This document shows positions 16,013 to 32,679 of a DNA stretch of 64,000 nt, piece by piece; within the stretch, counting starts at the first letter, position 1, and each line of letters starts with the position of its first letter. Under the pieces are notes generated by a model. It worked only from the letters and a program-made list of their open reading frames with translations, ran no database searches and was not told the DNA's origin. The translations under genes and the position numbers were made by a program. This stretch comes from Micromonospora sp. CPCC 205371 (lineage in GTDB: Bacteria > Actinomycetota > Actinomycetes > Mycobacteriales > Micromonosporaceae), in NCBI RefSeq assembly GCF_026130045.1, contig NZ_JAIBNX010000003.1:1-64000 (forward strand), given 5' to 3'.

Positions 16013-16019
16013 GTGTTCT

Positions 16020-17048: not shown

Positions 17049-17927
17049 TCACGCCGCTGCCTCCTTACGGGTGAAGACGGTCGCGGCGAGGTCGGCCAGC
17101 CGTAGCAGGCCGCCGGGGTGACGGTGCAGCCACCACACCGCTTCGGGGGGACTGGCACCGGTACGGACCGCGTCGTCGCGGGCGGTGGTGGCGACCGGCA
17201 GCGCGATCCCCTCCTGGTCGAGGTGTTGGTGCAGGTGGCGTTCCCGGGCGGCGGCGTGGAGCCAGAACAGCACCGGCCAGACCCGGCCGGTGACCTTGGC
17301 CAACGCCGCATAGTCGAACAGCTTGTCCACCAGCACCCCAAGCGGTTCCGTGCCCGTGTCGTACTCGACGAAGAACGGCACCCGCGCCTCGTGCTCGACC
17401 CAGATGCCGTGCCCGTCCGGGCGGATCCGCGGTTTGTACACCAGGATCTGGACGTCGTCGCCGGGTTCGGCGAAGGCGCCCCGTCCCTGCATCCGCGATG
17501 CCGGCCACCACCGCTCCAGCCGAGCTTCGGGGTGGGTGCGGGCGTAGCCGGCCAGCTCGATGAAGAACTGGTTGACGCCGAGCAGGTGCGGCAGGTTAGC
17601 CCGGTTGGTCAGGTGCCAGCGCCGCTTGCGGGCCGCATCGCGGCGGGGCAGCTCGTCGCCGCGTTGGGCGGAGACGACGTCGACGCCGAGTTGGTCGAGG
17701 ACGTAGTGGTAGGGGTGGGAGCCACCGTCGGGTCGCTGGGGCCGGAACCGGGCCAGCACGCCCAGGGCGGCGAGCTTGCGCAGGCGTTCCTGGGCGAAGT
17801 CGACGGACGGGAACAGGGCGTGGGCGATCTGGGCGGTGGTGAGCACGCCGTGGTCGGCCAGCCAGCCGAGCAGGACGTGGTCACGGTCGGTGAGCGCGGA
17901 TTGGATGCGCAGGACGTGATCGGTCAT
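17049..17927 (-). CDS. Replication-relaxation (Replic_Relax) family protein
   Basis: A 292-residue protein of the Replic_Relax family, found on actinomycete integrative and conjugative elements. The N-terminal winged-helix part reads LTDRDHVLLGWLADHGVLTT then QIAHALFPS and YHYVLDQLGVDVV. The middle carries HLLGVNQFFIELAGYAR and a nuclease-like core (EHEARVPFFVEYDTGTEPLG, LFDYAALAK), with PVLFWLHA following. The role is presumed in DNA processing for replication or transfer. The usual FtsK/TraB-type translocase gene is absent nearby, so the element may be incomplete or of a mobilisable type. Confidence 0.82.
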   Translation of the reverse strand: MTDHVLRIQSALTDRDHVLLGWLADHGVLTTAQIAHALFPSVDFAQERLRKLAALGVLARFRPQRPDGGSHPYHYVLDQLGVDVVSAQRGDELPRRDAARKRRWHLTNRANLPHLLGVNQFFIELAGYARTHPEARLERWWPASRMQGRGAFAEPGDDVQILVYKPRIRPDGHGIWVEHEARVPFFVEYDTGTEPLGVLVDKLFDYAALAKVTGRVWPVLFWLHAAARERHLHQHLDQEGIALPVATTARDDAVRTGASPPEAVWWLHRHPGGLLRLADLAATVFTRKEAAA

Positions 17928-19272
17928 AGGCAGCCTCCTATAGGTCGTTGTTCCCCCGGGGAGACCCCAAGACAGAGGGTCTGTCGGAGCAAGGCGCCCG
18001 CCGCCGACAGCGGCCGTGGCCTGCCCTGACAGATCCGGGAGGGGTCCGTTTCGGGGTCCGGATGAAGGTGGACCACCATCCGGAGGCCCGAACGGAGCCC
18101 CGGACGGAGGTCAAGGCGGGATCTGTCAACGCCGTAGGACCGGCCAGGCCGGATGGCCACCGCCGATGGCGCAGGTTGATGGTGGACAGGCACGTGGTAC
18201 TCCTCGAACACGGGACGGATGGGACTGACAGGTGCTTGCACCCGAGGTCAGGTCGGGTACGTCGAACGGCCTCGGGTGTTGCGCGGGATGCTCGGCCTCG
18301 TCGTCCTTGGACGCGAGGAGGGCAGGCTGTAGCCCTGCCGGAAGACGAGCCCCCTGGCCGGGCTTGGACGGTGCTGAGTGTTCCCTCTGTGGAGTTGTCA
18401 ACGAACGTGTACCAAGCGGTAGTTACCGGGCAGATCGGGGCAGAGTTTGGGTAGGTGGCATCGCCGTCCGATGAGACGACGACGTGCGGCGGTACAACGG
18501 GGAACAGAAGAGGCTCAGCGGCAGCGCGACCCCTCCGGGGTGTGCCGCTGACACAGCTCCGCACGGCGGGGCCGTCCACATTGGCGCGGTGTCCGCCGCC
18601 GACCTGCCTCAAGGGCTCGGTGGGCACCCATACGGACGCCTGGTGCGCCAAGCAAACGACGCGGCAGGCTCGCTGTCAGGTGGGGCGTCGTCGCCGACCG
18701 GCCCTACGGGGCGGGTGGGCACCCATGCGACGCTGATCCATCGGACGCACGAACCCTGTGCGGGTATGCAACGTGCTGGTGGTGCGAAGTAGCCCATCCA
18801 CTGTAGACGATCGAAGGTTCGCGCGATAGCCCATTACAGATCTCGAAGATCCGGGCATGGGTACGTTCAGGTCCGCCGACCGTTCCCCGGCTCCATAGAA
18901 CCAGGGCCTGGTCCGGGCCGATGTAGATCCGTCCAACCGGCGCGGAGAGATTCCCAAAGACTGATGTACTCGCGTTCTGGCTGGGGTTCACCCCGGAGCG
19001 AACAGCCCGCACCCCGGACGTCGGGCTCGCTGTGGCCGTAGTCATGGATCAGCTGGCTCCGCCGGCTGCCGCTTGACAGGCGCCGAATCGGTGTGCGGCG
19101 CCGGCAACGGTGATGACGTGGGTGCTGCTGCTGCCCGCCTCCAATGGGTGATATCAGCCCTAAACACACAGTTTGTCCGTCAAAGTCCTGGTTGGAACGC
19201 CGACCTTTTAGGCCTTCAGCCGAGCTGATGAGCGGCAGCCATCAGCGCGATCCGTTAGAGAGGAAGACGACG
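17928..19272. other. Long intergenic region of the integrative element
   Basis: More than 1.3 kb with no convincing gene. Frames present are short and low in typical actinobacterial codon bias. It contains scattered TGTCAG-type motifs (see the repeat entry) and G/C-rich inverted pieces around 18690-18720. Degraded genes or a cis-acting region such as an origin of transfer are both possible. Confidence 0.5.
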
Positions 19273-20610
19273 ATGCCGAAGACGACAGGCCCGAGGACCC
19301 GCAGGTCAAAGAGGCGTGGCGGGCGGACCGGCAGTTCCGTACGTTCCGGCCTGGTCCGCTCGCTGCCGTCCACTGGCGCCCGCCCCGCCGGCATCATCCG
19401 AATGGCGACGGCGGATGTTCAGCCTGAGCCAACCGCCGATGTCCCGCTTCGCACCCACGATGGCGATCGGCCTTTCTGGATGTTGGGCCCGGAACCCGCT
19501 TGGTGCGTCTTCGGCCACTTCGACGATGACCGGCTCGACGACCGCCGCCACGTCAGCGCCGCCGCCGAGATCAAGCTCTCCCTTGTCGACTCACAGGACC
19601 GCGGGTCGAGCCTCGCGATGGAGAACCGGTGGGAGCCCGCCCGGTTGCGCGTCGACCTGGTCCAGCGACTCACCGAAGCCCAACCCGCCGTGCGGCTGTT
19701 CCGCGACAACCAGTCCGACAAGCCCTGGGTAACCTGCACCCTTACCGAAGCCGAAACCCTCGCAACCAACCTCGCCATCGCAGCTGAGCGTGGGGAGGAA
19801 GCACTTCCCACCGAACCAGCCTCCGACGACTCCCCGTTCTGGCAGACGACCGCGTGCCCGCCGTGGTGCAACTCGGGACACGAGGTACGCGACTTCTACG
19901 ACGATCGCACCCACATAGACCTGGACCGTGGATGGGCAACGATCGACCTGCACCTCGAACGTGCAGACGAGAAGGAGCCCGAACAGCTCCAGGTACTCGT
20001 CCTACGCGACTACCAAGCTGTGATCGGGGTAGTCAGCCTGAGCAAGTCCGGGGCGGCCGGGGTGGATCTCACGCCCGCCGAAGCCCGCAACCTGGCCCGC
20101 CACCTTTGTCATCTCGTCGAGGCCAGCCGTCAGGCGCCCGACCAAGACAGTTGTTGGCCCGGTCACGGCGGACACCCCGACCCGTTGCGGCGGGATCTGA
20201 CGCACCGCAAGAAGCAGTTCCCCTGCCCCCACCGCATCCCCTGGTGCAGCGGCCACTCGAAGCGCGAGATCAAGGACGCACGGACCCCCGGCGACGGAAT
20301 CCTGCACCACGGCGACATCGACAGCGTGCCCTTCTCGATAGGTTCGATCACCGGCACGGTCGATGTGGCCGTTGAGTACCTGACCGAGGGCGACCGGCAG
20401 CCGTTCGCATACCTCCAAGTCGTGGGGGGCGACGGCGGCGCCGAACTCGACGCCATCAGCATCGACCACACCATCGCCGCCCTGCATAGGGCAAAGGCGC
20501 TCATCGAGGCCAACCACCCCGACCTCGTTCCGACCGCGACGAGCACCGCTGTCACCTACGTTGGCGCGCCATCTGCTCGTGCAAGCCGACCGCTGCCGAA
20601 CGCGGCGTAG
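19273..20610 (+). CDS. Protein with three DUF6907-like repeats
   Basis: A 445-residue protein built of three related modules, each opening with a Cys/Trp/His signature: PAWCVFGHFDDD (about residues 70-80), CPPWCNSGHEVRD and IPWCSGHSKRE. After each comes a strand-rich segment in the style of a small single-domain protein family, DUF6907, common on actinomycete mobile elements. Modules 2 and 3 keep helices that close the unit (DLTPAEARNLARHLCHLVEA; ISIDHTIAALHRAKALIEA). The start is the ATG at 19273 after GAGAGGAAG. The Cys/His pairs suggest metal binding. Function is unknown. Confidence 0.75.
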   Translation: MPKTTGPRTRRSKRRGGRTGSSVRSGLVRSLPSTGARPAGIIRMATADVQPEPTADVPLRTHDGDRPFWMLGPEPAWCVFGHFDDDRLDDRRHVSAAAEIKLSLVDSQDRGSSLAMENRWEPARLRVDLVQRLTEAQPAVRLFRDNQSDKPWVTCTLTEAETLATNLAIAAERGEEALPTEPASDDSPFWQTTACPPWCNSGHEVRDFYDDRTHIDLDRGWATIDLHLERADEKEPEQLQVLVLRDYQAVIGVVSLSKSGAAGVDLTPAEARNLARHLCHLVEASRQAPDQDSCWPGHGGHPDPLRRDLTHRKKQFPCPHRIPWCSGHSKREIKDARTPGDGILHHGDIDSVPFSIGSITGTVDVAVEYLTEGDRQPFAYLQVVGGDGGAELDAISIDHTIAALHRAKALIEANHPDLVPTATSTAVTYVGAPSARASRPLPNAA

Positions 20611-20657
20611 CCCGGACGCCGATAGCGCCTCGGACGACACCCACAGACCTACGGTTC

Positions 20658-20700
20658 CAGGATCCGGCTGCGCGGACAGCCTCGCCGTAGCCGGATCCTG
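20658..20700 (+). terminator. Hairpin downstream of the DUF6907 gene
   Basis: CAGGATCCGGCT and AGCCGGATCCTG form a perfect 12-base stem around a 19-base loop, starting 48 bases after the stop codon of the DUF6907-type gene. The position fits a transcription terminator. No T-tract follows. Confidence 0.55.
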
Positions 20701-20860
20701 TGGGTGGCAGTGCCTCAACCTCGGGCGGTCAGCGCGTCGCCAGTTCCCGCGGCGCGGCCTGCGGGGCCGCCGCTACTCATCCCACCTGGACGCCGTACGC
20801 AACTGATCGAAACCTGAACTTTGCATGGCTCCTTGGAAAGGCCTCCTGGAGGGAGCACTC

Positions 20861-21760
20861 CTATGGCCGCAATGCTGCACGCTGCTCGGCCGCAAGTATC
20901 TGGTTAATTCTGCGGATCCTGGCGTCGGCGGCGTCGTATCCGGTGATCCTTAGGAACCCGGCGCTGTCGACGCGATCGTGGTAGTGCAGCACTACGGGAT
21001 CGGTGAGCATCGGGTCGGCAAGGTGCGTCGGGTAGTTGTACCGCGATGGGAGAGGGCGTACCGCCAATCCCAGTTCGCGTGTCATGAGGCCGAAGGAGAC
21101 CTGGTCCGTGAAGAACGTGAGATCGCCAAGGATCTCCGGATGGGCCAGGAGCCACTTGTTCCATCTCGGCCAGGCGTCCCGTATCGCCTCGAACGCCTCG
21201 CGCGTCAACACGTAGACGCCGCCGTTGAAGTTGTGCGCGAAGGTGGGCTCGCGGGAGTGCGTGGAGAGGGCGACTTCTGGCTCGGCATCGAAGCCCGCAG
21301 CTGCGAAGATCCATCTCCAGTGATCGTGCGACGGCTTTGCGTTGTCGACAACCTTGGCGGCAACCATCTCCAGGTCCGAGAACAGGCCGCTGACGTCATC
21401 GGCGAAGGCGGCATCGCAGTCGGTGAGGACGATCAGATCGGCGTCCTGGAACGCCCCGCTGTGTAGCTGGCTGAGCTTGTTCGAGGGAGGATGGCGCTGG
21501 TCGAACCGAGGGACGGCGCGCATCTCGACGCCTTGGTCGCGTAGGAAGTCGAGGCGCCGGAGGTCCACTCCGTCGACGACGTGCACCACCAGTTCATGGG
21601 GTTGGCGTCGGGCGATTCGTAGGAGCGTCGTGCTCCAGATCCATGCCTGATGGGTGTACTTCGGGTCGTGGTCAACGACGCAGGAGAACTTGACCGACGC
21701 GTCATGCGGCGAGCGCCCCTCCATAGAGCCAGCGACTCGCCGCTGGTCAGACGGGCACAC
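20861..21760 (-). CDS. Glycosyltransferase-like protein (GT-A fold)
   Basis: A 299-residue protein with a GT-A type nucleotide-sugar fold: an opening KFSCVVDHDPKYTHQAWIWS, the metal-binding-like IVLTDCDAAF (DxD) near the middle, and NFNGGVYVLTREAFEAIRDA followed by FFTDQVSFGLMT, typical of transferases that handle a hexose nucleotide. Last gene of a minus-strand operon; its GTG start overlaps the dioxygenase stop by 14 bases (an ATG at 21724 is the alternative). The sugar donor and acceptor are unknown. Confidence 0.75.
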   Translation of the reverse strand: MCPSDQRRVAGSMEGRSPHDASVKFSCVVDHDPKYTHQAWIWSTTLLRIARRQPHELVVHVVDGVDLRRLDFLRDQGVEMRAVPRFDQRHPPSNKLSQLHSGAFQDADLIVLTDCDAAFADDVSGLFSDLEMVAAKVVDNAKPSHDHWRWIFAAAGFDAEPEVALSTHSREPTFAHNFNGGVYVLTREAFEAIRDAWPRWNKWLLAHPEILGDLTFFTDQVSFGLMTRELGLAVRPLPSRYNYPTHLADPMLTDPVVLHYHDRVDSAGFLRITGYDAADARIRRINQILAAEQRAALRP

Positions 21761-22466
21761 CGTTGATCGTCTCAGCGGGACGCTGGTACCCCAGCATTAC
21801 CTGGAGCCGTTGGTCGTGTACCCAAAGGTCCGGGTGTAGCGGGTCAGAGAGCGGTCGAATCCAGCGTTCGACGAAGCTCATCAGGACCGCTGTCCGCGGA
21901 CGGCCAGAGGAGTTGAAGCCCGAGCGGTGCCAGGTTGCCGCCGCCATCACCAACAGCGTTCCGGGCTCTGCCAGGAACGTCTCGGCCGCACTCGGCCACG
22001 GCGCAGATGGCCGCCGCGGTGGCACGTGCGAACCAGGGACGAGGCGGGTTGCCCCGTTGTGCTCGTCGAACTGGTCCAAGGCCAGGACGCATTGGAGGCC
22101 AAGTAGGCCGCCGCTTACCAGCTCAGGCATTTCGTTGTACGGGTAGTCGATGTGCCAGTCGTCGATGGGCTGGTCAGGGTTGACCACATTGAGGCTGTAG
22201 TCGGACAGCAGGTAGTACCGGCCGAGGAGCTCATCGAGAACGTCGGCGAGGCCGGGTTTGACCAGCATGTCGGCGAAGATCGGATCGTGCCGGTAGAGAT
22301 CCCATACCCGCGTGGACTTCGGGTATCGGTTCGCGTACTCGCCGTCGGCGAGGATGTCCGCAGCGCTCTTGAGGGCGCTGCATTGGTCGGGTGTCGCGTA
22401 GCCCGGCCAGATGGCGTAGCCGCGCCGGCGGACCTCGTCGGCGACCAGGGCAGGGACGATGGTCAT
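21747..22466 (-). CDS. Phytanoyl-CoA dioxygenase-type Fe(II)/2-oxoglutarate oxygenase
   Basis: A 239-residue member of the PhyH family, cytosolic non-haem iron oxygenases that hydroxylate, desaturate or chlorinate small molecules. The iron ligands are visible: WHID (His about 105, Asp about 107) and the distal His in ATWHRSGFN (about 180), with the 2-oxoglutarate-binding Arg shortly after (PRTAVLM). NGATRLVPGSH is the typical family linker. Its start overlaps the stop of the preceding 71-residue gene by 4 bases (ATGA). It probably tailors the product of the surrounding cluster. Confidence 0.88.
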   Translation of the reverse strand: MTIVPALVADEVRRRGYAIWPGYATPDQCSALKSAADILADGEYANRYPKSTRVWDLYRHDPIFADMLVKPGLADVLDELLGRYYLLSDYSLNVVNPDQPIDDWHIDYPYNEMPELVSGGLLGLQCVLALDQFDEHNGATRLVPGSHVPPRRPSAPWPSAAETFLAEPGTLLVMAAATWHRSGFNSSGRPRTAVLMSFVERWIRPLSDPLHPDLWVHDQRLQVMLGYQRPAETINGVPV

Positions 22467-22678
22467 GCCTCGCTCCTCGGATCGGACGTGGCCACGCGGA
22501 GTTCGATCAGGTCGGCGCGCCGGTCGTGCCGGGACAGGTCGACCAGGACGCCGTCCTGGTCCAGCAGGGCGACGATCGTGTCGGCGAAGGCGTCGAGATC
22601 GTCGTCGTCGCGGCGTACCGCGAATGTCCGGACGGTCGTCGCCAATGGCTCAACCTCGTCGACTCCAACGTCGCTCAT
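22463..22678 (-). CDS. Small acidic hypothetical protein
   Basis: A 71-residue protein (MSDVGVDEVEPLATTVRTFA at the start) rich in Asp and Glu, with a run of four aspartates. It lies 5 bases after the large glycosyltransferase stop and overlaps the oxygenase start by 4 bases, so it is translated as part of the operon. The size and charge recall small helper or carrier-type proteins, but no phosphopantetheine DSL motif is present. Unknown function. Confidence 0.65.
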   Translation of the reverse strand: MSDVGVDEVEPLATTVRTFAVRRDDDDLDAFADTIVALLDQDGVLVDLSRHDRRADLIELRVATSDPRSEA

Positions 22679-22683
22679 CCCAA

Positions 22684-24360
22684 TCACCCTCTCAGAAGGT
22701 GGTCTGCCTGTTCGGCGAGCACGGTGTCCGCGCCGGCCAGGCGGAGCGGTTGTCGTGCCGCCCACCCTCCGATCGTTGTCAGGTAGTCGGCCACCTCCGT
22801 TTCGGGTAGTGCGCCGAGGTCGAGGAGCACGACTGCCGCAGCAGTGGACCGGAGCAGTCGCGCCGCGCGGCGCTGGAACGCGTCCGGCCGGATCGTGGAG
22901 GCGTTGATCGATTCGGCCGAGACACTCAGCAGCGCAGGGGAAGGCGGCCGCTGTCGAAGCCATCGTTCGGCTGCTGGTGAGGGGCTGCGCTGGATGAGTA
23001 GCCGGATGCCCTGATCCACGATCGCCTGCGGTGGCACTGCGCCTGGGTCACAGTCCACCAGTGCCGCAACTGGCCTGCCAGGCACGGTTGCCGGCTGCCC
23101 GCTTCTGCTGAGCGACGCAAGCCCCACCACGCCGACGCCGTCTTGGCGGCTGTCGAGGACCGCCGCGTTCCTGAGGGTCTCGGGCAGCTGGGCGCGAAGT
23201 TTGTCCGGTTCGATCGAGGTGGGCGCGATGAGGACCAGGAGGAGCAGCTTGGGCGGCAGCTCCGGCGGGCGGGTCGGCTCGGCGCGGTGCTGGATGGCAC
23301 GAACCACGGCGTGGAGGGCCGTCGTCGACGCCGGGAGCCTCGCTGTCCTGGGCTGCCGGGTGAGGGCGTCGCGGATCAGCGGTTCGAGGCTGCTGCGGTC
23401 TGGTGCCCCGACGGCTCCGCCGAACTGGGCGGCGATCCGGTGGGCGTGTTCATCGAGCCCTTCCATGAACGACACGTCCGGCACGAGGACGAGCTGCCCG
23501 CGTCCCGAGAGCGCCTCGGAAAGGGCGTTGTTGCCAGGCTTGATGACGGCGACGTCCGCAGCGGCGAGCAGGGCCGGCAGGTGCGGCTCGAACCGTCGCA
23601 CCGTGACGGTGGCGGTTTCGTGGAGCGGGCGGCCGGCGTAGTAGGGGCCTGTGACCAGTACGAACCGTGCCGGATGTCCTTCCTCGGCCAATGCTGCCGC
23701 GATCGCCTGGCATGCGGAGAATAGGCGGTCGCCGTACCCGTCGGGCATCTGGTCGCCGCCCGCTCCGCCGTTGACGACGACGAGCGGCGCGCCGTTGGGT
23801 ACGTACGCCGACCGGACCGCCGCGACCTCGTCCCGGGCCGGCGCGCGAGCGATGTTGCCGATGAAGGTGAATCGGCCGCTGGACTCCACCGCGGCCAGCG
23901 AGTCGCCGCTGTGGCCTTCCTGGAGGAAGGCGTCGTGCTCTTGGGCGATGAGGATCTGGTCGTAATGGGCGAAGTCACCGCGCTGGCGGATCTGGTCGAA
24001 GGAGAGCCCGTCGAGCCGTCGCATGACCAGGAGCCGGGGGCGGTCGGCCAAGGCGGGCAGCCGCCGGTACCGCGCGTCGGGGTAGGTGTCCTCGATGACC
24101 ACGGCTGGGTCGAGCCGGTCGAGGAGCCGGTCGAGCAGGTCGGTGTAGAGGTCTTCGGCGATGGCCGAGGGGACCCGGTGCAGGAGCGGGAAGTTGATCA
24201 CCCGCACGGGCGTGTTCCGGTATAGGGCGAGGGAACTGGCCTGGCTGATCACGATGGGCCGGAGCCTGCCGGCGTTCTGGACGGCTTCGGCGATCAGCAG
24301 GGCCCGGCGGATGTGGCCGAAGCCGATGCCGTTCTTGACCAGGAAGACGGCGTTTCTCAT
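22684..24360 (-). CDS. GT28-like glycosyltransferase with C-terminal extension
   Basis: A 558-residue protein. Residues 1 to about 370 look like a GT-B enzyme of the MurG/UDP-GlcNAc transferase type: KNGIGFGHIRRALLIAEAV near the N-terminus, a central VNGGAGGDQMPDGYG, and a nucleotide-binding IKPGNNALSEALSGRGQLVL followed by EGLDEHAHR. About 190 further residues form an unassigned alpha/beta domain (LLLLVLIAPTSIEPDKLRAQ, ALVDCDPGAVPPQA) with no counterpart in plain GT28 enzymes. Overlaps the preceding GT4 gene by 4 bases. Sugar donor and acceptor unknown. Confidence 0.78.
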   Translation of the reverse strand: MRNAVFLVKNGIGFGHIRRALLIAEAVQNAGRLRPIVISQASSLALYRNTPVRVINFPLLHRVPSAIAEDLYTDLLDRLLDRLDPAVVIEDTYPDARYRRLPALADRPRLLVMRRLDGLSFDQIRQRGDFAHYDQILIAQEHDAFLQEGHSGDSLAAVESSGRFTFIGNIARAPARDEVAAVRSAYVPNGAPLVVVNGGAGGDQMPDGYGDRLFSACQAIAAALAEEGHPARFVLVTGPYYAGRPLHETATVTVRRFEPHLPALLAAADVAVIKPGNNALSEALSGRGQLVLVPDVSFMEGLDEHAHRIAAQFGGAVGAPDRSSLEPLIRDALTRQPRTARLPASTTALHAVVRAIQHRAEPTRPPELPPKLLLLVLIAPTSIEPDKLRAQLPETLRNAAVLDSRQDGVGVVGLASLSRSGQPATVPGRPVAALVDCDPGAVPPQAIVDQGIRLLIQRSPSPAAERWLRQRPPSPALLSVSAESINASTIRPDAFQRRAARLLRSTAAAVVLLDLGALPETEVADYLTTIGGWAARQPLRLAGADTVLAEQADHLLRG

Positions 24361-25505
24361 CGCGCCCCGGCCCGAGCGGTCGTGCCGGCCTCAGCAAGTC
24401 CGAGGAGGGTGAGGAGCGCCCGCCGGGCGCGTTCGCGGCCGTGCCGTTCTTCGATGGTCTTGCGGGCGGCGCGCCCGAGTCGCTGCCGCTCGGCGTGGTC
24501 GTCGGCGAGATCGAGTACGTTCGCGGCCATCGCGGCGACGTCGTGCTCGGCGACGAGTCGCCCGTTGACCTTGTCGGTGATGGCCTCGGGGATCCCCGCG
24601 TGGTTGGTGGCGATGACCGGTAGTCCGGCCGCCATGGCTTCGAGGATTGCCAGCGGTTGGCCTTCGGTGTCGCCGTCTTGCGGCGATGTGACGGCGTGGT
24701 GGAGCAGGATGTCCGCGCCGCGGATGAGGGCGAGGGTGTCGGGGTGTGGGAGTCGGCCGTGGACGTGAACCCGACCGGTCAGCTCGTGCCTGTCCACGTA
24801 CTGGCGGACTTCGCCCATCAGAGGACCGTCGCCGACCAGATCCAGGACCACGTTCTGGTGGCGGCTGGCGGCGTCGCGGAAGGCTTCCAGCAGCAGGAGC
24901 GGCGCCTTCTTCGGTACCAGGCGGCCGACGGCGACGCACCGGACGTCTGGGCTGCGGTCGCGGGTTGTGACTGGGCGAGGTGGCGGGAGTTCGACGCTGT
25001 AGCGGACGACGTGGATCTTCTCGGCTGGCAGCCCGAGGGTTGCGAGGGCGTCGGCGGCGACTGCGCTGGGGACGATGATCCCGGCCGCCAGGTCGTAGCG
25101 GCGGTAGGCGTCGCGCCACCGCTGCTCGGTCAATCTGGCCGAGAAGTCGACGCCGTGTCCCCGTAGCCACACGCGGACCGGCTGGCGAAGGAGGAAGTCG
25201 AACCAGCGGTCCGCGAAGTCCAGGTACTCGACGAGCACCGCCTCGACCCGGTGCGTTGCGAGGAAGTCGACGACCGCGTCGAGGCGTTCGGCTGACGGTG
25301 CCGGATCGCCGGGAAGCGGGTCGAAGGCGAGGACGGGACATTCGCCGGCGTCCCAGGCTTGGCCGTGGAGGACCGACTCACCTCTCGGAGGGGGGTCCGC
25401 GACGATGGCGGTCCCGCCTGGCAGCAGCTCACGGGTGTCCCAGCGGATGAAGGTCTCGCTGATCACGCCGATCTCGGGCAGGAAGACACAGAGTGGCCGG
25501 GACAC
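24357..25505 (-). CDS. GT4-family glycosyltransferase
   Basis: A 382-residue GT-B enzyme. The C-terminal domain carries the GT4 marks: CVAVGRLVPKKAPLLLLEAF (donor loop), LVGDGPLMGEV, VHVHGRLPHPD, and the EX7E-like GQPLAILEAMAAGLPVIA. The N-terminal domain holds VRVWLRGHGVDF, which resembles colanic-acid-type transferases. It is the first gene of its operon and its start lies 137 bases from the divergent argS start, so they share a promoter region. Confidence 0.9.
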   Translation of the reverse strand: MSRPLCVFLPEIGVISETFIRWDTRELLPGGTAIVADPPPRGESVLHGQAWDAGECPVLAFDPLPGDPAPSAERLDAVVDFLATHRVEAVLVEYLDFADRWFDFLLRQPVRVWLRGHGVDFSARLTEQRWRDAYRRYDLAAGIIVPSAVAADALATLGLPAEKIHVVRYSVELPPPRPVTTRDRSPDVRCVAVGRLVPKKAPLLLLEAFRDAASRHQNVVLDLVGDGPLMGEVRQYVDRHELTGRVHVHGRLPHPDTLALIRGADILLHHAVTSPQDGDTEGQPLAILEAMAAGLPVIATNHAGIPEAITDKVNGRLVAEHDVAAMAANVLDLADDHAERQRLGRAARKTIEERHGRERARRALLTLLGLAEAGTTARAGAR

Positions 25506-25642
25506 GCCGAACAGTATCGGGCGCCCTGGCGATGGTGGCTAGGCCCCAACAACGATGACAGGCGGCGAGGCACTGTGGCGTGCTCGTGGCGGGGGGTAAT
25601 CCATTAAAGCTACACACGGAAGGTCGACTAGATTGGTATCCC
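25506..25642. promoter_or_regulatory. Divergent promoter region between GT4 gene and argS
   Basis: The only substantial gap between the downstream operon and argS. It has an A/T-richer patch (TAATCCATTAAAGC) about 45 bases before the argS start and GGAAGG about 20 bases before it. No T-box anti-terminator pattern (stem I with a specifier, TGGN loop) is visible, so tRNA-dependent control is not supported. Promoter positions are not resolved. Confidence 0.35.
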
Positions 25643-27367
25643 ATGGCGACCCTGGAAAAGCTGCTACAAGATCGGCTAGCGTCCGCGTTCGAGGCTGTGG
25701 CCGGGGTTCCGGCCGACCCGAGTGTGCGCCGATCCCAGCACGCGGACTTCCAGGCCGATGGTGCCCTCGCTCTGGCCCGCCAGCTAGGGCGTAAGCCCCG
25801 GGATATCGCCGCCGACGTGGTTCAGCGAGCTCGGCTTGATGATCTATGCGCGTCGGTGGAGATCTCGGGGCCGGGGTTTATCAACCTGACTGTCGCCAAC
25901 GACGCGATCGCGCCGCTGCTCGCCGCCATGAACCGGGACGAACGGCTCGGCGTGCAGTCCGTCGCGGCTCCTGACACCGTGGTGGTCGACTACTCGGCGC
26001 CGAACGTTGCGAAGGAGATGCACGTCGGCCACCTTCGGTCGACGGTGATCGGGGATGCTGCGGTCCGGGTGCTGGAGTGGCTCGGCCACCGCGTGATCAA
26101 GGCCAACCACCTCGGGGACTGGGGCACCCCGTTCGGAATGTTGATCGAGCACCTGCTCGATATCGGCGAGACCGAGGCCGCCCACGAGTTGTCGCTGGGG
26201 GACCTCAACACCTTCTACCAGGCGGCCAGGACGAAGTTTGACGCCGACGACACGTTCAAGGAGCGGGCCCGGACTCGGGTCGTCGCCCTGCAAAGCGGGG
26301 ACGAGCAGACCCGCCGGATGTGGCGCCTGCTAGTCGATGAATCGGAGAAGTACTTCCTGGCCGTGTACGACCGGCTCGATGTGTGCCTTACCGAGAAGGA
26401 CTTCTTCGGCGAGAGCTTCTACAACGACATGCTGATACCGGTCGTTGAGGAACTGGACCGGCTCGGGCTGCTGCGGGAGAGCGACGGCGCCAAGGTTGTG
26501 TTCCCGGAAGGCTTCACCAACCGGGATGGCGACCCACTGCCGATCATCGTGCGGAAACGCGACGGCGGATTCGGGTACGGCGCCACAGACCTGGCAGCGA
26601 TCCGGTACCGGACCCAGGAGTTGGCCGCTACCCGGCTGTTGTACGTGGTTGGGCTGCCGCAGCAGCAGCACTTTGAGATGGTGTACGAGGTCGCCCGGGA
26701 GGCTGGCTGGTTGAGGCCACCGGCCCGCGCCGCCCATATCGGGTTCGGCTCCGTTCTCGGCCCGGACGGCAAGATCTTCCGTACCCGGGCCGGCGATACG
26801 ATCAAGCTGGTCGACCTGATCGACGAGGCGGTCGCGCGGGCGGCGGCTCTGATCGAGGAGAAAAACCCAGACCTCGACGAGTCCACCCGCGCCGAGGTCG
26901 CGCAGATGGTCGGCATCGGCGCGATCAAGTACGCAGACCTGTCCAATGACCGGACGAGAAACTATGTCTTCGACTGGAAGCGGATGCTGTCCTTCGACGG
27001 CAACACCGCCCCATACCTGCAATACGCACGGGCCCGGATTTTGTCGATCTTCCGGCGTGGTGAGGTCACGCCTATGCGGGACCTGGCCACTATCACGGTC
27101 GCCGAGCCGGCTGAGCGGGCCTTGGCGATCGAGCTGCTGGCCTTCGAGGGCGTGGTCTCCGAGGTCGCCGAGTCGCTGGAGTTCCACCGGCTCGCCCTTT
27201 ACCTCTACGGGGTAGCGACTGCGTTTACGGCGTTTTACGAAAAGTGCCCGGTCCTAAAGGCCGACGACCGGGTACGCGAGAGCAGGCTCGCGCTGAGCGA
27301 CCTGACCGCCCGCGTACTCGGCCGCGGGCTTGGCCTGCTTGGTATCGGTACGCCCGACCGTATGTGA
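25643..27367 (+). CDS. argS: Arginyl-tRNA synthetase
   Basis: A 574-residue class I synthetase that charges tRNA-Arg. The ATG at 25643 gives a normal length and the usual Arg_tRNA_synt_N domain. HVGHLRST (signature HIGH, about residues 127-130) is at the catalytic site, FGYGATDLAAI and YVVGLPQQQHF match the conserved core, and the C-terminal anticodon-binding domain runs to the end. It is embedded, on the opposite strand, between two tight operons of glycosyl-, sulfo- and decarboxylase-type genes. A housekeeping argS would be unusual there. A resistant second copy, or one supplying Arg-tRNA to a biosynthetic step, is inferred. Confidence 0.95.
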   Translation: MATLEKLLQDRLASAFEAVAGVPADPSVRRSQHADFQADGALALARQLGRKPRDIAADVVQRARLDDLCASVEISGPGFINLTVANDAIAPLLAAMNRDERLGVQSVAAPDTVVVDYSAPNVAKEMHVGHLRSTVIGDAAVRVLEWLGHRVIKANHLGDWGTPFGMLIEHLLDIGETEAAHELSLGDLNTFYQAARTKFDADDTFKERARTRVVALQSGDEQTRRMWRLLVDESEKYFLAVYDRLDVCLTEKDFFGESFYNDMLIPVVEELDRLGLLRESDGAKVVFPEGFTNRDGDPLPIIVRKRDGGFGYGATDLAAIRYRTQELAATRLLYVVGLPQQQHFEMVYEVAREAGWLRPPARAAHIGFGSVLGPDGKIFRTRAGDTIKLVDLIDEAVARAAALIEEKNPDLDESTRAEVAQMVGIGAIKYADLSNDRTRNYVFDWKRMLSFDGNTAPYLQYARARILSIFRRGEVTPMRDLATITVAEPAERALAIELLAFEGVVSEVAESLEFHRLALYLYGVATAFTAFYEKCPVLKADDRVRESRLALSDLTARVLGRGLGLLGIGTPDRM

Positions 27368-27368
27368 G

Positions 27369-28103
27369 TCACAGATACCCGAGGGTGCGGCACAACGGCC
27401 GCAGACCCTCGGGTATCTCCGCGTTCGTGGGCTGCGGCCGGCCGGGCAGAACCCGGCCGGCCCGGATCCGGTCAGTGAAGTCCCCGATGCCGGACAGGAA
27501 CGGGCCGTGGTCGCGCTTGCCGTACTCGACCATGCCAGCCTCCCACGGAACATCGAGGTACTCGCACAGCTCCCGGCTCACCCGCTCCGGGTGAGCGGTG
27601 AAGTCCTCGTACCGGACTGTGAGGCCGGTAAGCGCCCGCCGCGCCTCGCGGAGGTGAGTTAGGAACAGCTCGACGAGCTCGGTCGATTCGGCCGGTGTCG
27701 CATGGGGGCGGGCCGCGATCGCGGACTCCACCACGTGTACTGGGTGGCGGAGCAGGAATATGTAGCGGGCTTCCGGCCAGCACTCGGCAACGCGGCGCCA
27801 CCGCAACACATTCGTCGGCGTTTTGTCGACCACCAACTGCTTGCCCGAGCGGGCCAGCTCCCGGTGCAGCAACCGGTCCCACAGCAGGTGCTCCAGCTCG
27901 CGTTCATCAAGCTGCGCGACCTGCATGGCAAGCCGCACGAATTGGCTATCCATCCCCACCGTCAAGTCCACCAAGTGCAGCTCGTGAGGAGCATGGATGC
28001 GGGTATGAGTGTCGAGCACACAGCGCAGCAGCGTTGACCCGGACCGGATCGAACTCAGGACGAACACCGGTGACGCAACCAGCCGCTCCAGCAGAGCCTT
28101 CAT
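27369..28103 (-). CDS. PAPS-dependent sulfotransferase family protein
   Basis: A 244-residue protein of the Sulfotransfer family. The 5'-phosphosulfate loop (FVLSSIRSGSTLLRCVL) is at residues 13-29 and the 3'-phosphate binding stretch (IFLLRHPVHVVESAIA) near residue 115. VVDKTPTNVLRWRR is the usual segment between them. RYEDFTAHPERVSRELCEYL shows the family's C-terminal helix. It overlaps the nucleotidyltransferase gene by 4 bases as the last gene of its operon. It is expected to move sulfate from PAPS to a hydroxyl or amine of the cluster product. Confidence 0.87.
   Translation of the reverse strand: MKALLERLVASPVFVLSSIRSGSTLLRCVLDTHTRIHAPHELHLVDLTVGMDSQFVRLAMQVAQLDERELEHLLWDRLLHRELARSGKQLVVDKTPTNVLRWRRVAECWPEARYIFLLRHPVHVVESAIAARPHATPAESTELVELFLTHLREARRALTGLTVRYEDFTAHPERVSRELCEYLDVPWEAGMVEYGKRDHGPFLSGIGDFTDRIRAGRVLPGRPQPTNAEIPEGLRPLCRTLGYL
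27373..27418. terminator. Bidirectional hairpin between argS and sulfotransferase genes
   Basis: AGATACCCGAGGGT at 27373-27386 and ACCCTCGGGTATCT at 27405-27418 form a 14-base perfect stem; GCGG and CCGC extend it. It begins 5 bases after the argS stop, inside the last codons of the convergent sulfotransferase gene, so the same DNA encodes its C-terminus (EGLRPLCRTLGYL). It is well placed to end transcription from both sides. Confidence 0.8.
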
Positions 28104-28615
28104 AGCCGAATCGGCGGCTCTCTATCCAGCCCGAGTATGCGACGCAACTGTCCCGGCGGCGCCGGGTGCTGGCCCAGCACGTCGTGCGCCCGCGCGGTGA
28201 GCAGGCCGAGCGTCGGCGCATGATGGATGACGATCCGGCGGTCCAGCAACGCCCGGAGCACCTCGACGTTGTCGTGCTTGGCCAGGTGCGGATCGATATG
28301 ACCAGCGGCGGCCGCATCGCTTAGGACGTGGTGGAGCAGGTCGCTGCCCAGCGCGGCGTGGCAGGCATCGGTGGTGAACAACTCGATCGGGTACTCGGGG
28401 TCGGGTTGGTAGCCGAGGCCGCGCTGAAGTGCCCCGAACTCGGTCCTGATCAGCTCCAGTTGAACCCTGGCGAGCGGCTCCTTGATCAGGACGAAGCAGT
28501 CGAGGTCGCTGGCCGGGCCGGCGAGACCGGCGGCCACCGAGCCGTAGATGAAGGCGGCGACCAGATCACTACCGAGGTGCTCGTCGAGGAAGGACGCGAT
28601 CACGTCGGCGTTCAC
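28100..28615 (-). CDS. Nucleotidyltransferase (KNTase-like fold)
   Basis: A 171-residue protein with the NTP_transf_2 signature: AAFIYGSVAAGLAGPASDLD (GS...D.D, near residue 20-38), followed by CFVLIKE. This is the active site of minimal nucleotidyltransferases and aminoglycoside adenylyltransferases. The GTG start at 28615 overlaps the stop of the fusion gene (GTGA), a start that makes the protein begin directly at this domain. It may attach AMP to a sugar or amine intermediate, or confer self-protection; no C-terminal domain identifies the substrate. Confidence 0.8.
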   Translation of the reverse strand: MNADVIASFLDEHLGSDLVAAFIYGSVAAGLAGPASDLDCFVLIKEPLARVQLELIRTEFGALQRGLGYQPDPEYPIELFTTDACHAALGSDLLHHVLSDAAAAGHIDPHLAKHDNVEVLRALLDRRIVIHHAPTLGLLTARAHDVLGQHPAPPGQLRRILGLDREPPIRL

Positions 28616-31600
28616 GGCGCGTCGCTCCAGCCCGCAGGCCCCGCGATCGTCGGCCGCACTGCGCCGCCGACCGGTCCGGCGGCGGCGATGTCGGCAAGCA
28701 TGGCCGGTATGAGCGGCTTCGTGGCCTGTGCGAGCTGCTCGACCGCGCGGTCGAGGTCGGCTTGGGTGATCAGTGGGTTTCCGGGACACGCGGCCATGAT
28801 CGTGTAGCTGACGTCCGCGCCGGCGCCGACCCGGTCAGCGAGATCTGCCAGGGTGTGTTCGTCGAAGCAGACCTCACCCGACTGGTACAGCATCGCGTTC
28901 AGCCGCGACGTGTACTGGCTGACGACTCGGGCCGCATGACGCCTGCGCTCCGGAGGGAGGGCACGTATCGCCTGCCGGATCGGGGGTGGGCAGAAGACGA
29001 ACGCGAGGCGGTAGAAATCGACGTCGTTGAGGAGGACGAACAGGCCGGTCTCGTCGATGCGTCGCTCGAGGTAGCGCACGTGTGCCTGGCGGCTCTCCAC
29101 CAGATCGCCCAGCCGCCGCACACCGACGTGGCGCAGCAGTGTCCAGGTCGCCAGGCTCTCGAATCCCCGGGATCCCAGGAACGGTGTGATCAGCCCGAGG
29201 TCCCAGCAGTCGTCCGCCATCACGGCCGTCTCGTGGCGGCTGAACTGGGTAAGGACCCCGCGCTGCCGAAACAGCACATACGAGGATGGGTACGGCGTGA
29301 ACAGGCCCTTGTGCGGATCGAGCGACACGGAGTCGGCTTGTTCGATGCCGGCCAGGTGCCGGCGGCGCAGCCGTTCGCTGAAGATGAGGCTGCCGCCGTG
29401 GCAGGCATCGACGTGGAACCAGACGCCGTGGCGGCGACAGATCTCGGCGAGCGTCGCAAGGTCATCCAAGCCGGTGGTGCGGCAGTTCCCGGCGACCCCG
29501 ACGACCATGAACGGAGTCGTCCCGGCCGGCGGATCCGCTAGGGCCGCCTCGACGTCAGCCGGATCCGTCGTGTACCCGGACCTGGCACCGACGCTGATGA
29601 TGCTGTCCCAGCCCAAACCGAGGTGGAACGCGGCGTCGCTGTGGGAGTAGTGGGCGATCGGACCGGCCATGATGATGGTCGGCCGGGTGTCCATGGCCGG
29701 CAGACCGTGCCGCCGTACCTGCGGGAACCGCTGGCCGAGCGCCACGAGCATCGCGAGGTGGTTGGACAGATGGCCGCCCGTCGCCCACAATCCGGCGACG
29801 TCCTTAACCCCGCGCAGGTCCGTCAACGACGCGGACTCGTAGCCCACCAGGTCACGGAGCCACTCGATGACCTGGATCTCGACGAAGGTCGCCGCGGGCG
29901 CGCTGCGATCGACCGCGATCAGGTTCTGGTTGAGCAGCCGACCGAGCAGACCGCCGGCCATCGCCGCGATGGCATTGCCCGAGTCCGGGAAAGCAAGATA
30001 GCCCGGGTGGGACTGCGACACCGAGTACGGCACGACCTTGGCTTCCAGATCCGCCAGGACCTCGTCCAGGTCGGAGCCTTCCGACGGCAGCGGCCGATCG
30101 AGCAAGGAGGCCAGCTCTGTCGGTGAACAGTACCGGAGGTAAGGCTCACCGCCGTCAGCGCGGTGGACGAAGTCCAAGCCGATGCGGGTGGCAGCAGCCA
30201 GGGACTCCTCGTGCCCCTTCCGCGCCGCGCCGCTTCCGACGAGGTAAATCTCCAGCAACTCGCGATCGAGCCCGCCGATCGCGGTCCCGGCGCTGTGCAA
30301 CAGCTCGTCAACGAGCCGGCCCGGATCGGTGGTGAGGCGCTGGTACCAGTGCTCGGCCCCCATCCGGTGGGCCGCAAGGCGCTCTACACCAATAGCGTCG
30401 AGAGCCTCCACGAGCGCGGCGGTCCTGGGGGCGGATGGGTCAGGCATGCCGCTGGCGTGTCGGCGAAGGCTGCGGCAGATGTCGGCTTCCATGGCGGCCT
30501 CGAACGCCTCCAGACAGGCGACCAGCTGTGCGGGGTCAGCGACCGCGGTCAGGTGGCGGAACAGCCGTACTTCCATCTCGACCGGGATGAAGTCGCCCCA
30601 GAAGTGGCCCAGCTCGTGCCCGTGCAGGACGCCACTGTCCCGATCGCGGGTCGGACGGGTGTGCCGGCCTTCGAGTGCGACGCTGGCCTCCAGCAGCTCT
30701 CTGCGCTGGCGCCAGGTCACCATGTCGACGCCGAGCAGCGCCCGTTCGAAGTCGTCCGCGGGCATCGGGTAGTCGTCCGGCACGTCGGGCCCGCCGTCGA
30801 CGCGTGCGAAGAGCCGCGCGGTCTCCTCTGCGGTGAGGCAGTCGGCGAAGAAGACCCGGTGCCACAGTAGACACTCCGCGGCCCGCGCCGGATCCTCGCT
30901 GGCGTCGACGGACTCCTCGAAATCGATGAGCACGACCTGCCCACCACGCAGGAACATGTTCCGGGGCGCGAAGCCCTGCCACACGAGACCCTGGTCGGTC
31001 ATCGCTGCTCTCAGCGCGGCGAGCGATTCCACGAGCGCCGCGCGTTGAGTGGCGTCGAGGTCCCGCGAGCGCAATCGGTCCTCCAACGTGCGACCAAGGT
31101 TGGGCGCGAAGACCCACGGGTCGCCGTCGGGCACGTCGACCACCGCGTACTCGTCGTGCGCCTTGATACTGAGCGGGGCGGCTCGCGACGCGGCGGACAA
31201 AGCCGGCTTGATCCGGCTCTGGTGCCGGGACCGCGCCGCGACCGACTCGGCCGGCCACCTCAGCGCGACCAGTTCGTGGCTGGCGGCGCGAACCAGATGC
31301 GCCTGCCGGGACGGGTGGATGGGGACGGCGGTCTGCTCCAGGCGCGGCTGAGCCTCGACGAACCTGGTGACGTCCGGATGGCGCGCGACGAGGTCCCGGA
31401 CCAGGCTGACAACCGGTCCGGCACCACCGACCGCCGGAGCGCTGCCACCCTGGGCTTCCTGTGCTGGCGGGCGAGGCGTTCCAGCAAGCAGCGCCACCGC
31501 AGCGCCCGGGTCGTGCACGGCTATGGCGAGTGCCGCCTCGACCGTCTTGGGCGGGGCGTCCCGTTCGAGCTGAGCCAGCACGACCGCGTACCGGTCGGCG

Positions 31601-31707
31601 AACCGCCACGACAGCGCGCCCGCCGACGACAATGTCGCCCGCCATGCCGATACCCGACCCGCCCGCTGCGTGGCGGCATCGGCTGCCGCGGAGGTCGCCG
31701 CGGTCAC
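28612..31707 (-). CDS. Fusion of kinase-like domain and PLP-dependent group II decarboxylase
   Basis: A 1031-residue protein. The last ~500 residues are a group II (pyridoxal_deC) decarboxylase: LWATGGHLSNHLAM, HVDACHGGS (Asp about 767, pairs with the PLP nitrogen) and DPHKGLFTPYP with the PLP lysine at about 800. The first ~360 residues contain a protein-kinase-like segment: WQGFAPRNMFLRGGQVVLID followed by FEE at 243-264 keeps the metal-binding Asn and Asp but not the catalytic Asp of HxD. Group II decarboxylases act on Glu, diaminobutyrate or aromatic amino acids. Overlaps its neighbours by 4 bases on both sides. Confidence 0.82.
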   Translation of the reverse strand: MTAATSAAADAATQRAGRVSAWRATLSSAGALSWRFADRYAVVLAQLERDAPPKTVEAALAIAVHDPGAAVALLAGTPRPPAQEAQGGSAPAVGGAGPVVSLVRDLVARHPDVTRFVEAQPRLEQTAVPIHPSRQAHLVRAASHELVALRWPAESVAARSRHQSRIKPALSAASRAAPLSIKAHDEYAVVDVPDGDPWVFAPNLGRTLEDRLRSRDLDATQRAALVESLAALRAAMTDQGLVWQGFAPRNMFLRGGQVVLIDFEESVDASEDPARAAECLLWHRVFFADCLTAEETARLFARVDGGPDVPDDYPMPADDFERALLGVDMVTWRQRRELLEASVALEGRHTRPTRDRDSGVLHGHELGHFWGDFIPVEMEVRLFRHLTAVADPAQLVACLEAFEAAMEADICRSLRRHASGMPDPSAPRTAALVEALDAIGVERLAAHRMGAEHWYQRLTTDPGRLVDELLHSAGTAIGGLDRELLEIYLVGSGAARKGHEESLAAATRIGLDFVHRADGGEPYLRYCSPTELASLLDRPLPSEGSDLDEVLADLEAKVVPYSVSQSHPGYLAFPDSGNAIAAMAGGLLGRLLNQNLIAVDRSAPAATFVEIQVIEWLRDLVGYESASLTDLRGVKDVAGLWATGGHLSNHLAMLVALGQRFPQVRRHGLPAMDTRPTIIMAGPIAHYSHSDAAFHLGLGWDSIISVGARSGYTTDPADVEAALADPPAGTTPFMVVGVAGNCRTTGLDDLATLAEICRRHGVWFHVDACHGGSLIFSERLRRRHLAGIEQADSVSLDPHKGLFTPYPSSYVLFRQRGVLTQFSRHETAVMADDCWDLGLITPFLGSRGFESLATWTLLRHVGVRRLGDLVESRQAHVRYLERRIDETGLFVLLNDVDFYRLAFVFCPPPIRQAIRALPPERRRHAARVVSQYTSRLNAMLYQSGEVCFDEHTLADLADRVGAGADVSYTIMAACPGNPLITQADLDRAVEQLAQATKPLIPAMLADIAAAGPVGGAVRPTIAGPAGWSDAP

Positions 31708-32531
31708 GCCGGTACTCCCGCCGGTCGATACCGCTGCTCCAACTCGGCCAGGATCTCGGCCTTCACGTCCGGCTCCTGGGTGTGGTACATCGAACCGGCT
31801 GCGACCTTGCGGTCACAGTGGAACACGTCCAGCGGCCATGCCTCGGGAAACGCGATCTGCCGGCCTCCTGTCGTGCCGACGTGGGACACAAGGTCTTCCC
31901 AGTTGTAGCTCAGGTCCGGGCGGTCGATGAACACGTCCAGATCCCACGCCCCGAACCGTTCTGCAACGGGGACGAAGCGCGCCACGTCGTACGCGATGAA
32001 ATGCGCCGACAACCGGTTGACCGACCGCACCCCAGATTCGACCGCTGGACCTTCGTCGGCCAGCTTCCACGACCACTGGTCGTAGTCGTTCACCTTGGAC
32101 AGCACCGGAACCTGCGGATGCCGCTCGAACAACTCCCGACATGCGGTCAAGACGTCGAACGATCGCTCGGTCCGGTACATGACCACGTCTCCCTCGATGA
32201 CGATCAGATACGGAGCCCGCGGTGTGAAAAAGCGACGGTGGCCGTTGTTTGAGGGATCGCCGCTCGCCACATGCCGGTGGCGCCGACGAAGTTGCAGCTC
32301 GTCGACGCCCCACGCATCCAGCAGCGCCGGAAGCTGTTCGGCGACGTCTTGGGGAGTCCCGTCAGCTCGTAGGACCACCTCAAACGATTGGGACGTCCCG
32401 TTGGTCAGCGCTTCGAGGCACCGCGGCAGCGTCGTCTTGAGAAGGTCGAGTTCGGAGTGGAACAGGAAGGCGATCCGGAACATCGGACCGGATGGCCCGT
32501 CCTGCGGCTCAATTGATCGCGCGCTGTCCAT
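31704..32531 (-). CDS. Glycosyltransferase-like protein (GT-A fold)
   Basis: First gene of the upstream operon, 275 residues from the ATG at 32531 (an upstream start at 32621 adds an arginine-rich stretch that looks spurious). MFRIAFLFHSELDLLKTTLP opens a GT-A-like domain; YLIVIEGDVVMYRTERSFD carries an acidic pair in the place of DxD, and WDLDVFIDRPDLSYNWEDLV follows. It resembles family 2-type transferases only loosely. Its stop overlaps the fusion gene start by 4 bases. Donor and acceptor unknown. Confidence 0.7.
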   Translation of the reverse strand: MDSARSIEPQDGPSGPMFRIAFLFHSELDLLKTTLPRCLEALTNGTSQSFEVVLRADGTPQDVAEQLPALLDAWGVDELQLRRRHRHVASGDPSNNGHRRFFTPRAPYLIVIEGDVVMYRTERSFDVLTACRELFERHPQVPVLSKVNDYDQWSWKLADEGPAVESGVRSVNRLSAHFIAYDVARFVPVAERFGAWDLDVFIDRPDLSYNWEDLVSHVGTTGGRQIAFPEAWPLDVFHCDRKVAAGSMYHTQEPDVKAEILAELEQRYRPAGVPA

Positions 32532-32679
32532 CAGCCTCTTCCACGGTCTACATCGGCGTGTAGCGACAACTCGGTCAAGCGAACGAGCGTAGCGGTACCT
32601 TCCTCTCCGCGCTTCCCGCATTACCCTCAGTCACCTCCGTCCAGCCCGAGGGCGCTGCTGCGTGCAGGCTGGCCGGCGC

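What the first reader, a model, noticed from the sequence alone, without database searches (positions are those of the whole stretch)
20861..32531. Possible undescribed biosynthetic cluster built around an arginyl-tRNA synthetase
Nine genes in two minus-strand operons flank argS on the plus strand, mostly joined by 4-nt overlaps. They encode four glycosyltransferase-like proteins, a Fe/2OG oxygenase, a sulfotransferase, a nucleotidyltransferase, a kinase-like/PLP decarboxylase fusion and a 71-residue protein. Seen: order, overlaps, motifs. Known: such enzymes decorate sugars, amines and lipids, and extra aminoacyl-tRNA synthetases in clusters often give self-resistance or feed a tRNA-dependent step. 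Inferred: a sulfated, glycosylated amine product linked to arginine. I recognise no matching pathway.
Basis: partly seen in the sequence, partly recalled or inferred. Interest (0 to 1): 0.8.

Follow-up and report, generated by a model that had tools for sequence, protein, structure and literature searches.

The report
Antibiotic-type cluster carrying extra arginyl-tRNA synthetase
A soil actinobacterium carries an unstudied set of sugar-, sulfate- and amine-forming genes packed around a spare arginyl-tRNA synthetase, and the same pairing recurs in other bacteria with unrelated spare copies, which suggests the product attacks, or is built with, the cell's arginine-loading enzyme.

Summary
Nine genes in two minus-strand operons (20861-25505 and 27369-32621) flank a complete argS (25643-27367, +). 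The genome has a separate housekeeping argS, only 26% identical. The set recurs in 11 distinct genomes (Phytohabitans, Salinispora, another Micromonosporaceae genus, Streptomyces), always with argS inside and with unrelated flanks. A divergent version (type 2) in two other Micromonosporaceae genomes keeps the decarboxylase, GT2-like enzyme, sulfotransferase, kinase-like and nucleotidyltransferase domains, but carries an independently duplicated, housekeeping-type argS. A Roseibium (alphaproteobacterium) plasmid carries the same module without the sulfotransferase, plus a third kind of argS. The module-ArgRS link is well supported; the function is inferred. Most likely this is a biosynthetic cluster for an ArgRS-directed, glycosylated and possibly sulfated amine, with ArgRS as resistant target copy (about 0.5). 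Arginylation of the product by or through this ArgRS is the main rival. A related spare ArgRS, usually without the cluster, occurs in half of Micromonosporaceae genomes, like a resistance gene. No such cluster, and no bacterial ArgRS-inhibitor natural product, turned up in the open papers searched.

The parts
31704..32621 (-). K: GT2/GT-A-like glycosyltransferase (probable true start near 32501), first gene of the right operon; best marker of the cluster
   Evidence: No Pfam family; 69-99% identical in type-1 clusters, 37-38% in type 2, 35% in Roseibium
28612..31707 (-). J: N-terminal RIO/PRPK-like kinase fold (catalytic-loop Asp replaced, WQGFAPRN at about residues 243-250; IDFEE at 262-265) fused to a group II PLP decarboxylase (Lys about residue 800)
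   Evidence: PF00282 E 4e-45; structure model and Foldseek; nearest PDB CSAD/GADL1/GAD; alignments A1, A6
28100..28615 (-). I: Pol-beta-type nucleotidyltransferase with GS...DxD motif
   Evidence: PF01909 E 2e-6; conserved motif in alignment A3
27369..28103 (-). H: sulfotransferase with conserved PAPS-type loops (RSGSTLLR, RHP)
   Evidence: PF13469 E 4e-24; alignment A2 including type-2 members
25643..27367 (+). argS: complete arginyl-tRNA synthetase, 574 aa, HVGH motif, GDWGTPFG variant motif; second argS of the genome
   Evidence: PF03485, PF00750, PF05746; TIGR00456 488 bits; housekeeping copy elsewhere; trees
24357..25505 (-). E: GT4 glycosyltransferase, first gene of the left operon; missing in five of the six Streptomyces clusters
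   Evidence: PF00534 E 7e-33
22684..24360 (-). D: GT-B glycosyltransferase plus C-terminal alpha/beta domain of unknown role
   Evidence: Model pLDDT 81; Foldseek hits OleD, CalG, GtfA, kitacinnamycin GT
22463..22678 (-). C: conserved 71-residue protein of unknown role
   Evidence: Alignment A4 of 8 members, 36-77% identity; purifying selection
21747..22466 (-). B: PhyH-family Fe(II)/2-oxoglutarate oxygenase
   Evidence: PF05721 E 6e-16; conserved in type-1 clusters
20861..21760 (-). A: accessory GT8-like protein (TDCDAAF motif), shared only with Phytohabitans G004
   Evidence: No Pfam; 85% in L033, absent from the other loci

Best explanation
This is an uncharacterised biosynthetic gene cluster with its own resistant target. 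The decarboxylase half of J makes an amine from an acidic or related amino acid. The glycosyltransferases (K, D, E, and accessory A), sulfotransferase, nucleotidyltransferase, kinase-like domain and Fe/2OG oxygenase build and decorate it. The product interferes with arginyl-tRNA synthetase, and the divergent ArgRS in the cluster keeps the producer's Arg-tRNA supply running, as the spare synthetases do in mupirocin, borrelidin, albomycin, agrocin and indolmycin systems. Shown here: gene content, domains, conservation, second-copy status, and repeated recruitment of unrelated ArgRSs to the same module. Inferred: the substrates, the order of steps, the product's target, and resistance.
For: Every cluster genome tested also has another argS. 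Type-1 ArgRS is 26% identical to the window genome's housekeeping ArgRS and about 50% to that of five of the Streptomyces hosts. Type-2 clusters carry a different, independently duplicated ArgRS, 61-67% identical to Phytohabitans-type and G020 housekeeping copies. A Roseibium plasmid with the module carries a third ArgRS lineage, and only 53 of 72,556 plasmid records have argS. ArgRS motifs and anticodon domain are intact and the gene is under purifying selection. A related GTPFG-type ArgRS stands alone in about half of 355 Micromonosporaceae genomes, as expected of a resistance gene held by non-producers. argS is in neither biosynthetic operon. D resembles antibiotic glycosyltransferases. Some Streptomyces versions also have APH(6)-type kinase and GNAT genes next door. 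Spare-synthetase precedents: PMC7916415, PMC12945691.
Against: No product, inhibition or resistance data. No guanidine-forming or aminoacyl-mimic enzyme is recognised that would explain ArgRS specificity. Solo copies could serve another purpose such as stress or growth-phase expression. The Q-to-P change in GDWGTQFG is a lineage trait, not specific to the cluster, and its effect is unknown. On the Roseibium plasmid argS lies about 43 kb from the module, with NRPS genes and transposases between.
Confidence: 0.5

Rival explanations
1. The ArgRS is biosynthetic: it supplies Arg-tRNA for, or itself catalyses (as SbzA does with Ile-tRNA), attachment of arginine to the pathway amine. It may also confer resistance, as AcmD does in the ascamycin cluster.
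For: A decarboxylase-made amine is a natural acceptor, as in valanimycin. SbzA and AcmD show that a spare synthetase can do both jobs (PMC12945691). Catalytic and tRNA-binding domains are intact. Repeated recruitment would also fit a chemical need for Arg-tRNA.
Against: No known aminoacyl-tRNA transferase family in the conserved core; the GNAT gene is only next to some Streptomyces versions. The housekeeping ArgRS could already supply Arg-tRNA. Related ArgRSs exist alone in many genomes lacking the pathway.
Confidence: 0.3
2. The cluster makes a cell-surface or lipid-linked glycan-like decoration, and ArgRS supplies arginine or protects translation only incidentally.
For: Several glycosyltransferases, a sulfotransferase and a PhyH oxygenase also occur in surface-carbohydrate loci; B weakly matches the SpoChoClust_3 oxygenase model.
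Against: No flippase, polymerase or export gene in the conserved block; D's nearest folds are small-molecule glycosyltransferases; patchy, rare distribution.
Confidence: 0.12
3. Chance neighbourhood: argS has nothing to do with the flanking genes.
For: GTPFG-type solo argS is common in this family and sits in varied places; argS is on the opposite strand.
Against: argS stays inside the block in all 11 type-1 genomes although other genes have moved; type-2 clusters and a Roseibium plasmid have unrelated extra argS.
Confidence: 0.05

Closest known systems
Clusters with a spare aminoacyl-tRNA synthetase as resistant target (mupirocin IleRS2, borrelidin ThrRS, albomycin SerRS, agrocin AgnB2 LeuRS, indolmycin TrpRS)
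   Same: Second, divergent, apparently functional synthetase inside or linked to the biosynthetic genes; related copies also found alone in other strains
   Different: Specific for arginine, for which no bacterial example was found here; the biosynthetic enzymes are unrelated; resistance untested
SB-203208 (SbzA) and ascamycin (AcmD/AcmF) clusters
   Same: Extra synthetase in the cluster that can be tied to self-resistance and to aminoacylation of the product
   Different: Ile and Ala instead of Arg; there the aminoacyl transfer and product are known; no AcmF-like second synthetase here
Valanimycin (VlmL seryl-tRNA synthetase with VlmA transferase)
   Same: Dedicated synthetase in a cluster whose acceptor is an amine from a decarboxylated amino acid
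   Different: No VlmA-like (MprF/GNAT) transferase in the conserved core here
Type-2 clusters in G001 (L035), G020 (L036) and the Roseibium plasmid NZ_CP045635.1
   Same: Decarboxylase, K-like GT, kinase-like and nucleotidyltransferase domains (sulfotransferase in the first two) plus an extra argS
   Different: Two radical SAM/SPASM enzymes, no D/C/B found, different domain fusion, unrelated argS lineages

Membership tests
Arginyl-tRNA synthetase | N-terminal, class I catalytic and DALR anticodon domains, HIGH-like motif | tested here: met
   PF03485, PF00750, PF05746; TIGR00456 488 bits; HVGH retained
Arginyl-tRNA synthetase | Charges tRNA-Arg with arginine | not testable with these tools
   Needs enzyme assay
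Cluster-borne resistant aminoacyl-tRNA synthetase | Additional to a housekeeping copy in the same genome | tested here: met
Cluster-borne resistant aminoacyl-tRNA synthetase | Genetically linked to biosynthetic genes across strains | tested here: met
   Roseibium linkage looser
Cluster-borne resistant aminoacyl-tRNA synthetase | Insensitive to the cluster product, which inhibits the housekeeping enzyme | not testable with these tools
   Product unknown
aa-tRNA-dependent biosynthesis (valanimycin type) | Known aminoacyl-tRNA transferase fold (GNAT/Fem, CDPS, LanB-like) encoded in the cluster | tested here: not met
   None in the conserved core by Pfam or fold search; a GNAT gene only beside some Streptomyces versions
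aa-tRNA-dependent biosynthesis (SbzA type) | The synthetase itself transfers the aminoacyl group to a small molecule | not testable with these tools
   Needs enzyme assay
Active RIO/APH-type kinase (J N-terminus) | Catalytic Asp of the HxD loop and metal-binding DFG-like Asp | tested here: not met
   HGD-type loop reads WQGFAPRN in type 1 and GLVPRN/GFVPRN in type 2; IDFEE/IDWED kept; possible pseudokinase or altered chemistry
Group II PLP decarboxylase (J C-terminus) | Catalytic Lys in the HK motif and pyridine-binding Asp | tested here: met
   DPHKG and HVDACHGG invariant in A1
Anti-phage defence system | Strong match of several proteins to defence models | tested here: not met
   Only weak nucleotidyltransferase hits, best 22 bits

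The most novel reading that the evidence does not exclude
The cluster makes an arginine-bearing or arginine-mimicking glycosylated, sulfated amine that poisons ArgRS, and the embedded ArgRS both installs the arginyl group (SbzA-like) and resists the product. This would be a dedicated bacterial ArgRS-inhibitor pathway, with the widespread solo ArgRS acting as environmental resistance.
Probability: 0.15. Interest if true: 0.85.

Novelty: new variant of a known kind. Interest (0 to 1): 0.62.

Why it matters
Spare synthetases in gene clusters have repeatedly revealed antibiotics and their targets. No bacterial natural product known to target ArgRS, and no ArgRS-based cluster, appeared in the open papers searched here, so this points to an unexplored target and chemistry. 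It also offers a testable explanation for the second ArgRS in about half of Micromonosporaceae genomes. Recruitment of unrelated ArgRSs to one enzyme module, across two phyla, makes the link hard to dismiss.

Tried and rejected
Q184P (numbering of the 595-aa ORF) in the GDWGTQFG motif was first read as a cluster-specific resistance mutation; rejected, because the GTPFG form is in 179 of 355 Micromonosporaceae genomes, mostly without the cluster. The changes in the same motif in type-2 (GAQ) and Roseibium (GLQ) ArgRS were not used as evidence, since this position may vary naturally. The HELGH sequence in the J N-terminus (residues 364-368) looked like a zinc motif, but the type-2 counterpart is AELGH, so it was dropped. 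A sampled class-wide search with K found only the window; family and genus searches were needed. K homologues at about 47% (L084-L090) have no argS or J nearby, so they are not the same cluster. PDB profile searches with the J N-terminus, D and K gave nothing useful by sequence. Paper searches found no matching pathway. No tRNA gene or Rfam element lies in the window. A defence-system reading was tested and dropped.
Full report
What is there. The window comes from a Micromonosporaceae genome of the same genus as Phytohabitans maris (P. maris appears to be the held genome G005, with identical argS coordinates). Nine genes on the minus strand form two operon-like groups around a plus-strand argS. 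Right group: K (31704-32621), J (28612-31707), I (28100-28615), H (27369-28103). Left group: E (24357-25505), D (22684-24360), C (22463-22678), B (21747-22466), A (20861-21760). Five junctions overlap by 4 nt. The argS start is best placed at ATG 25643, giving 574 aa like most relatives.

Gene assignments. Pfam places E as GT4, B as PhyH, H as Sulfotransfer_3, I as NTP_transf_2, the J C-terminus as Pyridoxal_deC and argS as a full ArgRS. The decarboxylase is nearest to CSAD, GADL1, GAD and diaminobutyrate decarboxylase structures. The N-terminal half of J reaches no family but its predicted structure (pLDDT 80) matches PRPK/RIO kinases. The catalytic Asp of the HGD-type loop is replaced (WQGFAPRN) while the metal-site Asp (IDFEE) is kept, so its chemistry is uncertain. 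D is a GT-B enzyme closest to small-molecule glycosyltransferases such as OleD, CalG and GtfA, followed by an alpha/beta domain of unknown role. K and A are glycosyltransferase-like by motif only.

Conservation (type 1). A scan of 84,980 genomes with J gave eight full-length relatives, in six Streptomyces, Phytohabitans maris and Salinispora cortesiana. Genus and family searches added G004 and G514. The Salinispora locus L026 appears to be the same genome as G631/G106. With the window's own this makes 11 distinct genomes. All hold K, J, I, H, argS and D, and C and B where the fetched stretch reaches them. argS is within the block every time, although in three Streptomyces the D-C-B group has moved to the other side. 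Flanking genes are not shared across genera. The nine genes compared with P. maris show purifying selection.

Second-copy status. The window genome has one other ArgRS (contig C268, 547 aa, 26% identical, followed by a lysA-like diaminopimelate decarboxylase gene), which looks like the housekeeping copy. Every other cluster genome tested also has at least two argS (G514 was not tested).

Independent recruitment. In G001 and G020 a divergent cluster (type 2) has the decarboxylase (45-48%), K (37-38%), the sulfotransferase (46-48%), a protein joining the kinase-like and nucleotidyltransferase domains, two radical SAM/SPASM enzymes and a GT4. The kinase-like domain is fused to the decarboxylase in type 1 and to the nucleotidyltransferase in type 2, which itself suggests that these domains act together. 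Type-2 clusters carry an extra ArgRS of the housekeeping type; the two group together in the tree (84/98 support). It is adjacent to the first radical SAM gene in one genome and about 1.2 kb away in the other, in different orientations. A Roseibium aggregatum plasmid has radical SAM, radical SAM, decarboxylase (41%), K (35%), epimerase, GDP-mannose dehydratase-like, GT4 and kinase-nucleotidyltransferase (26%), with no sulfotransferase found. The same plasmid carries an annotated argS of a third lineage (35% to the window's). The deposited record repeats itself at its ends (features at 15154-27739 reappear at 206492-219075), so argS is about 43 kb from the module on the true circle, with NRPS genes and transposases between. 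Only 53 of 72,556 plasmid records have argS, many of them chromosome-sized. A random second argS has roughly a 0.2% chance of lying within 10 kb of a given locus in a 9 Mb genome (own estimate), so type 2 alone makes coincidence unlikely.

The wider ArgRS family. The window ArgRS has GDWGTPFG where the reference and Streptomyces housekeeping ArgRSs have GDWGTQFG. This is not cluster-specific: 179 of 355 Micromonosporaceae genomes encode it, and 12 sampled solo loci plus L091 and L092 have no other cluster gene nearby. The tree puts cluster ArgRSs in two branches, one of Micromonosporaceae (with one solo copy, G003) and one of Streptomyces; most sampled solo copies, from genus g30, form a separate clade. 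A widespread solo relative of a cluster-borne synthetase recalls the indolmycin-resistant TrpRS of S. coelicolor (cited in PMC7916415) and fits a resistance gene. It does not prove one.

How it probably works. J makes an amine; glycosyl-, sulfo- and nucleotidyltransfer and hydroxylation decorate it; the product acts on ArgRS; the cluster ArgRS keeps Arg-tRNA made. Only the gene content, domains, conservation and recruitment are shown. The strongest rival is a biosynthetic role, supported by the SbzA and AcmD precedents in which a spare synthetase both transfers or feeds the aminoacyl group and gives resistance (PMC12945691). Against it, no known aminoacyl-tRNA transferase is in the conserved core, though ArgRS itself might do it.

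Verdict. Observation confirmed; cluster real and undescribed in the sources searched; association with ArgRS strongly supported; function inferred.

Noticed in passing
179 of 355 Micromonosporaceae genomes; L118-L129, L091: A second, standalone GTPFG-type ArgRS is present in about half of the family, in varied neighbourhoods (one, L124, beside NRPS-like genes); role unexplained.
   Followed up: partly
L125:8072-9274, L128:11371-11835, L129:10788-12026: Beside the solo ArgRS lies an apparent tryptophanyl-tRNA synthetase (LTGDRPTGRLHLGHYVGSI), possibly a small island of spare synthetases.
   Followed up: no
window 14203-15915 (-), 17049-17927 (-), 19144-20610 (+); L026:21664-22551: Large serine recombinase, Replic_Relax and DUF6907 genes next to the cluster; a Replic_Relax gene also follows the Salinispora cluster, hinting at spread by a mobile element.
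   Followed up: partly
L092:9215-11001 (Salinispora G106 contig C15): A solo GTPFG-type argS is split into two reading frames, apparently decayed, in a genome whose cluster copy is intact.
   Followed up: partly
L084-L090: K-like glycosyltransferases (46-50%) without argS or J; in the two loci read (L086, L089) beside CofD/YvcK-like, epimerase, UDP-glucose dehydrogenase-like and TPP-enzyme-like genes.
   Followed up: partly
L024:852-3458 and equivalents in L022, L023, L028: Streptomyces clusters are flanked by APH(6)-type kinase and GNAT genes (hexapeptide acetyltransferase in some), possible extra self-protection.
   Followed up: partly
L021-L023, L027, L028 between I and H (e.g. L023:13602-14468): Streptomyces versions have an extra HisJ-like PHP phosphatase gene inserted in the right operon.
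   Followed up: partly
NZ_CP045635.1 (L130, L132, L134): The Roseibium plasmid record repeats about 28 kb at its two ends (untrimmed assembly) and carries NRPS/PKS, methylaspartate mutase and aromatic amino acid lyase genes between the module and argS.
   Followed up: partly
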